Shown: positions 40,297 to 41,370 of the stretch, one piece after another
How positions within the stretch are numbered: the stretch's first letter is position 1
Layout: every line of letters starts with the position of its first letter
Source of the DNA: Moniliophthora roreri
Lineage: Eukaryota; Basidiomycota; Agaricomycetes; Agaricales; Marasmiaceae
Reading direction: 5' to 3'
Length of the DNA stretch: 64,000 bases
Assembly (NCBI GenBank): GCA_001466705.2
Contig: LATX02000189.1
Span: forward strand, 310,001-374,000
Made by a program: the position numbers and the translations under genes
The notes under the pieces: model-generated
Told to the model about the DNA's origin: nothing
Database searches by the model: none
The model's input: the letters and a program-made list of their open reading frames with translations, nothing else

Positions 40297-41370
40297 TCAT
40301 CCACCGGTTGCGCCCCAAAGGCTATTGGATACCATAGCCGGCGCTATCCCGTGTTCAATGTCTTCGCTCTTCGGACGCGTAAGTTGGGGTTCCGAGGACG
40401 AACGGTCATCGTTCTTCATCCAAGAACGAGCGATATACGTAAGTCCCAGTGCAGTGACCCTGGTGCCGATCCATTGCGCAAAGGGCATACCTGGAATCAA
40501 GCGCATGACATCTTTAATATCCCAAAAATCTCGGTGATGGGTGATGCGACCCTGCTCATTGAAGGAGAGCCGCGTGATAGTATGGAGTTGAAAATGGAGA
40601 GGAGATGGCACGGTGAGAGAAGTACCTAGAACGGGCAATACTGGATGGGCTGGATGTGATGGTGACGTAGCAGAGGAAAGTAATGAGTCGGTTGACTGGG
40701 CGAATTGTGCGCTTCGCATGCTGTCGGTATGTATTCCTGGAAGGATGAGGATGTTCAGGGTATGTTCAATGATCGTCTTTCGGTGTCCATCTGGAGGTCC
40801 GAGGCAGAAGTTGAGTGTTTTGCGCTAATGGCAGACGGATATGACTAACCAAAGCCCTCGGTTTCACTAATGTCTCCAATATCAGTCCAAGCTTTCAGAG
40901 CATGGAAGAGTGGTTTGTTGATATATGACGGAAGCTCCAAGCCGAACAAGGTATAGATTACAGCAAGCGGACGAGGTATATCGATGTTGCTGAGCCGTCG
41001 TGATAACCGATATATATCTGAAAGCATTGCACGAGATGTAGTGGTTATAAAGGGATTTTCGTAGCTTGAACGCGATGTCAGAAGTCTCGATGACGGCAAC
41101 AAGACGATTTCGCTTACACTGTCCAAGGATTCAGTAATTTGGAGGATTCAAACAAGTTGGGAACGCACCAGCATTTGGTTCATAGTAACGCTCGATAGCA
41201 TCGTGCGACGATGGTCTTTCTCCATAAACGGACTGGCAGATTTCGAATGAGCTCGTGTGCATGGAAATCATCGAGAGGTTGGGGAAATTAGTGATCGGGG
41301 AATGCTGGTGGTCTTCGAATACATTGGACTGGGTATCTAGAGGCTCTGGAAATGGAATCGACGAGGCCAT
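40297..41370 (-). CDS. NTF2-like-fold (SnoaL/SigF-like) basidiomycete protein
   Basis: Exons 41370-41169, 41118 alone, 41064-40850 and 40790-40297 give 303 residues. The order AIERYYEPNA / YENPFITTTSRAMLSDIYRL is the pattern of NTF2-like proteins (a helix followed by a tyrosine-rich strand). LPVLGTSLTVPSPLHFQLH, RLSFNEQGRITHHRDFWDIK and DVMRLIPGMPFAQW match the last strands and C-terminal helix of that fold as found in many Agaricomycete hypothetical proteins. The ligand or reaction is unknown. The link between the first and third exons keeps frame only if a single T at 41118 is included, as described separately. Start is the first ATG (MASSIPFPEPLDTQ). Confidence 0.72.
41118..41118 (-). other. 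Candidate one-nucleotide exon (T)
   Basis: On the minus strand the sequence reads ...TTGGACAG T GTAAGC... Left of the T is a 50-nt intron (41168-41119, GTGCGT...ACTGAATCCTTGGACAG). Right of it is a 53-nt intron (41117-41065, GTAAGC...TTCTGACATCGCGTTCAAG). Both have good donor, branch-site-like and acceptor sequences. Exon 1 ends with one extra base (G) and the next exon begins with one (C). Only with the T between them is the frame kept, giving codon 68 as G-T-C from three exons. Confidence 0.6.

What the first reader, a model, noticed from the sequence alone, without database searches (positions are those of the whole stretch)
41064..41169. A one-nucleotide exon: one codon assembled from three exons
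In the NTF2-like gene, exon 1 ends at 41169 with one base of a codon (G) and the exon at 41064 starts with one base (C) before the conserved YENPF. A direct splice breaks the frame. Between them, ACAG T GTAAGC provides a perfect acceptor and donor around a single T (41118), making two introns of 50 and 53 nt, both with branch-like CTGA(A/C) motifs. The codon GTC is then made from three exons. Exons of one base are very rare and are missed by gene finders. Alternatives would be stepwise (recursive) splicing of a 104-nt intron with a base change, or a sequence error.
Basis: partly seen in the sequence, partly recalled or inferred. Interest (0 to 1): 0.87.

Follow-up and report, generated by a model that had tools for sequence, protein, structure and literature searches.

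The report
One-letter exon shared by mushrooms
In the cacao frosty-pod fungus, one gene very likely contains an exon only one letter long (a single T), and relatives' proteins suggest that many other mushrooms share it, so that most public gene models of this protein are likely wrong at that spot.

Summary
On the minus strand, exon 1 ends at 41169 and exon 3 starts at 41064; joining them directly shifts the frame. Between them lies ACAG-T-GTAAGC (T at 41118), leaving introns of 50 and 53 nt. Of 33 in-frame GT/GC-AG solutions, only the one-T exon keeps NA-x-YENP (x = Val). The gene encodes a 303-residue protein of Moniliophthora roreri with a predicted NTF2-like fold. The deposited protein from the same contig has Gly there, which none of the 33 gives.

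No M. roreri RNA could be read, so the test is indirect. Among 188 homologs, unnamed contigs that look spliced have Val or Ile (middle base T) in 40 of 41 clean cases; 1 of 121 named gene models does. The same 121 get the next junction right 114 times. Their errors fit a phase-1 donor meeting an AG|N acceptor. Translated introns of relatives carry words compatible with AG-T-GTNAG 44-62 nt before exon 3 in 8 of 36 eligible inserts (0.43 by shuffling). The exon therefore appears shared by Agaricales, Boletales and Russulales, though not by most Polyporales seen. One-base exons are known (plant APC11, VPS55; Fusarium CYP621A); this is a new, probably old member.

The parts
41169..41370 (-). Exon 1, from ATG to the first base (G) of the split codon
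   Evidence: open frame, 67 residues; phase 1 at its end
41119..41168 (-). Intron 1, 50 nt, GTGCGT...ACAG, branch-like CTGAA
41118..41118 (-). Proposed one-nucleotide exon, T, middle base of the valine codon GTC
   Evidence: only solution of 33 that keeps NA-x-YENP; V or I in 40 of 41 clean transcript-like relatives
41065..41117 (-). Intron 2, 53 nt, GTAAGC...CAAG, branch-like CTGAC
40850..41064 (-). Exon 3, starting with the last base (C) of the split codon, then YENPF
   Evidence: YENP conserved in relatives
40791..40849 (-). Ordinary 59-nt intron, used as control junction
   Evidence: contiguous in 114 of 121 named gene models
40297..40790 (-). Last exon, ending in TGA; whole protein 303 residues

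Best explanation
The T at 41118 is very likely a real one-nucleotide exon of a gene for a protein with a predicted NTF2-like fold, expected to be joined between exon 1 and exon 3 so that G, T and C from three exons make one valine codon. The spliceosome would remove the 50-nt and 53-nt introns one after the other, each by intron definition, because it could hardly assemble on both sides of one base at the same time. Intron 2 (GTAAGC donor, CTGAC motif) would most likely go first, leaving ACAG|TCTACG as a normal acceptor for intron 1; this order is a guess. Skipping the T by removing all 104 nt shifts the frame and stops six residues later, so inclusion would be needed for a full-length protein. 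Shown here: the sequence, the phases, the frame consequences, V or I in relatives' apparently spliced proteins, and the systematic errors of deposited gene models. Inferred: use of the exon in M. roreri itself, the order of splicing, and descent of the exon from a common ancestor of Agaricales, Boletales and Russulales.
For: (1) Of 33 in-frame GT/GC-AG solutions, one keeps NA-x-YENP: the T exon, giving V. (2) Single residue between YExxA and YENP: on unnamed contigs V 25, I 15, T 1 (41 of 67); in named gene models G 6, S 5, R 2, T 8, V 1, M 1, K 1, Q 1 (25 of 121). V and I codons have T in the middle. (3) Control: the ordinary junction downstream is right in 114 of the same 121 named models. 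(4) Model errors fit a phase-1 donor and an AG|N TAC acceptor: 21 of 22 two-residue inserts start with S or G (= A|GT or G|GT); in models that enter YENP from upstream the last residue is S or R (= AGN) in 39 of 67, 12.1 expected. (5) Translated introns of relatives: words compatible with AG-T-GTNAG or CAG-T-GTAA at 44-62 nt before exon 3 in 8 of 36 eligible inserts, permuted mean 0.43, maximum 4 in 20,000; P0056 reads as 52+1+47 nt, P0089 as 55+1+59 nt. (6) Close pairs: two Suillus genome models with G against V at 94% identity; Marasmius fiardii G against V at 85%; unspliced P0089 against P0041 with I; Schizophyllum P0103 with QCK against P0077 with I; Amanita P0029 with a six-residue insert against P0018 with I.
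Against: No RNA of M. roreri was available and no DNA of relatives could be fetched (searches found none), so the relatives' introns are seen only through translated gene models, and SVS or QCK is compatible with, not proof of, AGTGTNAG. The unnamed contigs are taken to be transcripts because their frames run through both intron positions (39 of 41; P0171 and P0182 read into the second intron), not because a record says so. Relatives are not independent, so the probabilities are guides. Of the 8 signature hits P0033 is doubtful (22 nt from the donor) and P0138 and P0145 are near-duplicates. Thr stands at the junction in 8 named models, among them Polyporales and also Cristinia sonorae, which NCBI files under Agaricales, and in one unnamed contig (P0174); M, K and Q in three more are unexplained. 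The exon is therefore not universal.
Confidence: 0.93

Rival explanations
1. The deposited model is right: a single 103-nt non-canonical intron (TG-AG 41167-41065, or GT-AA 41168-41066) is removed and the codon is GGC, glycine.
For: The deposited protein WG66_006838 has Gly here and is otherwise identical. Five more of the 25 single-residue named models also have G, among them Marasmius fiardii, Jaapia and Suillus.
Against: None of the 33 GT/GC-AG solutions gives Gly. 0 of 41 clean unnamed contigs have G, even where a close relative's gene model has it. It ignores a strong ACAG-T-GTAAGC in the right place.
Confidence: 0.03
2. Assembly error or real one-base deletion: an ordinary phase-1 intron lost one base at its edge, and the gene is wrongly read or broken in this strain.
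For: A one-base change would restore an ordinary junction; nothing here re-sequences the base.
Against: Gene models of many other genera show the same phase conflict, and the rest of the 303-codon frame is intact. The perfect acceptor and donor around the T would be a coincidence (0 of 20,000 shuffles for YAGNGTRAGY with both introns at 40 nt or more).
Confidence: 0.02
3. Stepwise (recursive or stwintron-like) removal of one complex 104-nt intron, the T being only a splicing relay and not kept.
For: Two short introns abut one base; stwintrons are common in some fungi (PMC6616335, passages).
Against: Removing everything shifts the frame and stops six residues later. Clean unnamed relatives keep exactly one residue with T in the middle of its codon in 40 of 41. 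Stepwise order with the T kept is not a rival but part of the best explanation.
Confidence: 0.02

Closest known systems
Arabidopsis APC11 one-nucleotide exon (PMC4674806; abstract, outline and Discussion read)
   Same: A constitutive one-base exon between two introns; successive intron-defined removal is proposed there too; mis-annotated before.
   Different: Plant gene, base A, proven with reporter constructs; unrelated protein.
Plant VPS55 and APC11 one-nucleotide microexons (PMC8831610; passages read)
   Same: One-base exons conserved over an old clade, missing from reference annotations, with conserved GTRAGT donors (VPS55).
   Different: Land plants; verified with RNA-seq and RT-PCR; VPS55 also has alternative forms.
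Fusarium CYP621A one-nucleotide exon (PMC12940212; abstract, Results and Discussion read)
   Same: Fungal; middle base of a codon in a conserved motif; phase-1 boundary that cannot join a phase-2 exon; found from the same kind of frame conflict.
   Different: Ascomycete P450 gene, base G (AGGGT), Fusarium orthologs; supported by SRA reads. Here: Basidiomycota, base T, apparently three orders, no reads checked.
Fungal stwintrons (PMC6616335; passages read)
   Same: Two short introns needing successive splicing in a fungal gene.
   Different: In a stwintron the internal intron splits a splice signal and nothing is kept as exon; here one base would be kept.
Placozoan mitochondrial cox1 single-base exon (PMC5436844; search listing only)
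   Same: A one-base exon.
   Different: Mitochondrial gene; spliceosome not involved (recalled).

Membership tests
Single-nucleotide (one-base) spliceosomal exon | One base bounded by a canonical AG acceptor and a GT donor | tested here: met
   ACAG-T-GTAAGC at 41122-41112
Single-nucleotide (one-base) spliceosomal exon | Both flanking introns of spliceable length with branch-like motifs | tested here: met
   50 and 53 nt, CTGAA and CTGAC; the neighbouring ordinary intron is 59 nt
Single-nucleotide (one-base) spliceosomal exon | Omitting the base breaks the reading frame | tested here: met
   303-codon frame with the T, stop after 73 residues without it
Single-nucleotide (one-base) spliceosomal exon | Mature RNA contains the base | tested here: inconclusive
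   Not read in M. roreri; 40 of 41 clean transcript-like relatives have V or I, both with T in the middle of the codon
Single-nucleotide (one-base) spliceosomal exon | Reporter or RT-PCR proof of splicing | not testable with these tools
   bench work
Stwintron | Whole nested sequence removed, nothing kept as exon | tested here: not met
   Complete removal gives a frameshift and early stop; relatives keep one residue
Non-canonical TG-AG or GT-AA intron (deposited model) | Gly at the junction in spliced relatives | tested here: not met
   0 of 41 clean transcript-like relatives have G
NTF2-like fold (host protein) | NTF2/SnoaL/ketosteroid isomerase fold | tested here: met
Pfam NTF2_SigF (PF24840) | Score above the gathering cut-off of 25 bits | tested here: not met
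   21.6 bits for P0002; 3 of 58 members match at E 0.01 or better

The most novel reading that the evidence does not exclude
A single T has been spliced as an exon of its own since before Agaricales, Boletales and Russulales parted. It is kept as an obligatory quality gate: any failure to remove both introns in turn shifts the frame and destroys the message, so the one-base exon sets how much of this NTF2-like protein a mushroom makes.
Probability: 0.15. Interest if true: 0.85.

Novelty: new member of a known kind. Interest (0 to 1): 0.66.

Why it matters
Few one-nucleotide exons are described in the papers read here (plant APC11 and VPS55, Fusarium CYP621A). One that recurs across three mushroom orders, with the base, its place in the codon and intron lengths near 50 nt apparently kept, would be a natural experiment for how a spliceosome handles an exon too small to bind, with many species and tractable hosts such as Schizophyllum commune. 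It also shows a cheap way to find such exons: a junction where gene models of many species fail in the same phase while spliced sequences agree. If the reading is right, most deposited models of this protein family seen here are wrong at one junction and need correction.

Tried and rejected
Paralog or allele in the same genome: a DNA search of the assembly found only the locus itself. Direct RNA of M. roreri: none held; the 2023 genome paper (PMC10468315; passages and the Gene prediction section read) used RNA-seq, but its M. roreri assemblies of 11 to 21 contigs are not this one of 154. How WG66_006838 was predicted was not found (listing; PMC8567236 passages). A first structure model from 13 sequences was poor (mean pLDDT 59.8) and was replaced by one from 58 of the 188 homologs, chosen by me. 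Sequence search of solved structures gave nothing significant (best E 0.33). Pfam NTF2_SigF stays below its cut-off. Reading the insert of P0030 (Lentinula raphanica, 27 residues) by eye for the AG-T-GT signature gave none; it may be partly spliced. (pattern GTAAGC in the genome) told only the size of the genome, 59.4 Mb in 154 contigs. No tRNA gene in the window. My first assumption that Thr marks Polyporales alone was corrected: Cristinia sonorae is Agaricales in NCBI. Literature: no one-base exon in a basidiomycete nuclear gene was seen in the listings for 'single-nucleotide exon', 'microexon, fungi, intron, Basidiomycota', 'stwintron' or 'microexon' (25 of 735 listed), '1-nt exon', 'one-nucleotide exon', 'microexon, mushroom' (12 of 20 listed) and 'microexon, Agaricomycetes'; only an open-licence library was searched.

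Full report
What the sequence shows. The window lies in contig C91 of a 59.4-Mb assembly of 154 contigs. C91 is 1,556,181 bases long, the length given for the contig that carries the NCBI protein WG66_006838 of Moniliophthora roreri. The gene is on the minus strand. Exon 1 runs from ATG at 41370 to 41169 and ends with one codon base, G. Exon 3 starts at 41064 with one codon base, C, followed by TAC GAA AAT CCC (YENP). Between them lie 104 bases: a 50-nt stretch GTGCGT...ACAG, a single T at 41118, and a 53-nt stretch GTAAGC...CAAG. They carry CTGAA and CTGAC starting 16 and 17 nt before their ends. With the T the frame is open for 303 codons, through an ordinary 59-nt intron at 40849-40791, to TGA at 40299-40297; without it the frame stops after 73 residues, six past NA.

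Is it more than chance? I enumerated splicing solutions with GT or GC donors (from 60 bases before the end of exon 1), AG acceptors and one or two introns of at least 35 nt that put YENP in frame without a stop. There are 33; one keeps NA-x-YENP, and it is the T exon. In 20,000 dinucleotide-preserving shuffles, YAG-N-GTRAGY with both introns at 40 nt or more never appeared, and YAG-N-GTRNGY appeared in 0.08%. Bare AG-N-GT would be weak evidence (5.7%).

What the deposited annotation says. The deposited protein (P0002) has 303 residues and differs from the T-exon product at one residue, number 68: Gly for Val. None of the 33 solutions gives Gly. It corresponds to removing 103 bases with TG-AG or GT-AA ends. 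I infer that this is what an aligner or gene finder may return when the true message has one base more than a 104-base intron allows; how that model was made was not found.

Relatives as a test. Three protein searches (120 of 280, 120 of 321 and 120 of 255 hits listed) gave 188 homologs, P0002-P0189. I divided them into 121 with an organism name (gene models) and 67 from unnamed contigs. In the unnamed set 42 reach from YExxA to YENP: 41 have a single residue between (V 25, I 15, T 1) and one (P0089) a 39-residue insert; 9 lack the upstream anchor and 16 lack YENP. In the named set 91 span it; 25 of these have a single residue (G 6, S 5, R 2, T 8, V 1, M 1, K 1, Q 1), 22 have two and 44 have three or more; 13 lack the anchor and 17 lack YENP. 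Of the 41 clean unnamed proteins, 33 lie on contigs of at most 2,009 bases and 39 also run through the second intron position without a break (38 by pattern, P0094 by eye); P0171 and P0182 read into that second intron. That is why I take them as spliced RNA; no record confirms it.

The control. In the same 121 named models, the next junction, an ordinary intron in M. roreri, is contiguous in 114. So these models are generally good, and the failure is specific to the junction with the proposed one-base exon.

The errors are informative. If exon 1 ends with A or G in phase 1 and exon 3 begins AG|N TAC, a gene finder that cannot use a one-base exon must improvise. Reading through the donor gives AGT (S) or GGT (G): 21 of 22 two-residue inserts start with S or G, and their second residues fit a donor moved to the +5 GT (the +5 reading is my inference). 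Entering YENP through the acceptor gives AGN, S or R: 39 of 67 such proteins, 12.1 expected from composition, binomial P 3e-13 (relatives are not independent). One-base-shifted junctions give AGC, GGC, AGA or AGG, that is S, G or R: 13 of the 25 single-residue named cases.

Intron letters of relatives. Inserts that are translated introns can partly be read back: AGT-GTN-AGY appears as S-V-S and CAG-TGT-AAR as Q-C-K, though these residues have other codons too. Of 42 inserts of 15 residues or more, 36 could hold a second intron; 8 have such a word (SVS, SVR or [QKE]C[KE]) 44-62 nt before exon 3, where shuffled inserts give 0.43 on average and at most 4 in 20,000 runs. Two inserts hold both introns: P0056 of Mycena citricolor (52 + 1 + 47 nt) and P0089 from an unnamed contig (55 + 1 + 59 nt). 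P0089 also retains the second intron, and its relative P0041 is clean with I. P0015 of Lentinula edodes, P0098 (unnamed) and two Russula-like contigs (P0138, P0145, near-duplicates) give a second intron of 53 nt, as in M. roreri; Schizophyllum commune P0103 gives 52 nt, and its relative P0077 is clean with I. P0033 (SVR, 22 nt from the donor) is doubtful. Two Suillus genome models with G face V relatives at 94% identity, Marasmius fiardii G faces V at 85%, and an Amanita model with a six-residue insert faces a clean I at 87%.

Spread. The named taxa place the signature in Agaricales (M. roreri, Mycena, Schizophyllum, Lentinula), Boletales (Suillus) and Russulales (Russula). Jaapia (Jaapiales) has the G form. 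Thr stands in 8 named models: Panus and Trametes are Polyporales, but Cristinia sonorae is Agaricales in NCBI. One unnamed contig 60% identical to the Panus protein also has Thr, so the junction seems ordinary there; Trametopsis (Polyporales) has V. Common descent of the exon is an inference from these patterns.

Mechanism. Sequential intron-defined splicing is the natural reading; the APC11 authors argue the same for their exon and cite a potato case with a 9-nt exon in which the second intron leaves first (PMC4674806, Discussion). Here the second donor (GTAAGC) and second branch motif (CTGAC) look closer to the general fungal consensus (recalled), so intron 2 first is my guess. Nothing in this work tests the order.

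Known kind. One-nucleotide exons are described for plant APC11 and VPS55 (PMC8831610, passages) and for Fusarium CYP621A, reported in 2026 as the second example and the first in a fungal gene (PMC12940212, abstract and two sections); the VPS55 case of 2022 is not counted there. The present case is therefore a new member of a known kind. What is unusual is the apparent spread over three orders and the systematic failure of deposited models. I saw no report of a one-base exon in a basidiomycete nuclear gene (open-licence library only, some listings cut).

Noticed in passing
P0099, P0109, P0116, P0126, P0130, P0173, P0178, P0180 (named) and P0174 (unnamed): Thr at the junction in gene models and one unnamed contig, so the one-base exon is probably absent or replaced in these species (Polyporales among them, but also Cristinia sonorae, Agaricales in NCBI); useful for dating gain or loss.
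   Followed up: partly
P0171 and P0182 (unnamed Russula-like contigs): Joined at the one-base-exon junction (V) but reading into the next intron: perhaps partly spliced RNA, which would mean that the introns around the T leave before the ordinary one.
   Followed up: no
P0002-P0189, the 121 named proteins: Deposited gene models of this family fail at one junction (1 of 121 has V or I there) though the next junction is right in 114 of 121.
   Followed up: yes
P0172 (Ganoderma leucocontextum), P0177 (Amylocystis lapponica), P0181 (Taiwanofungus camphoratus): Single residues M, K and Q at the junction, neither the usual error form nor V or I; not explained.
   Followed up: no
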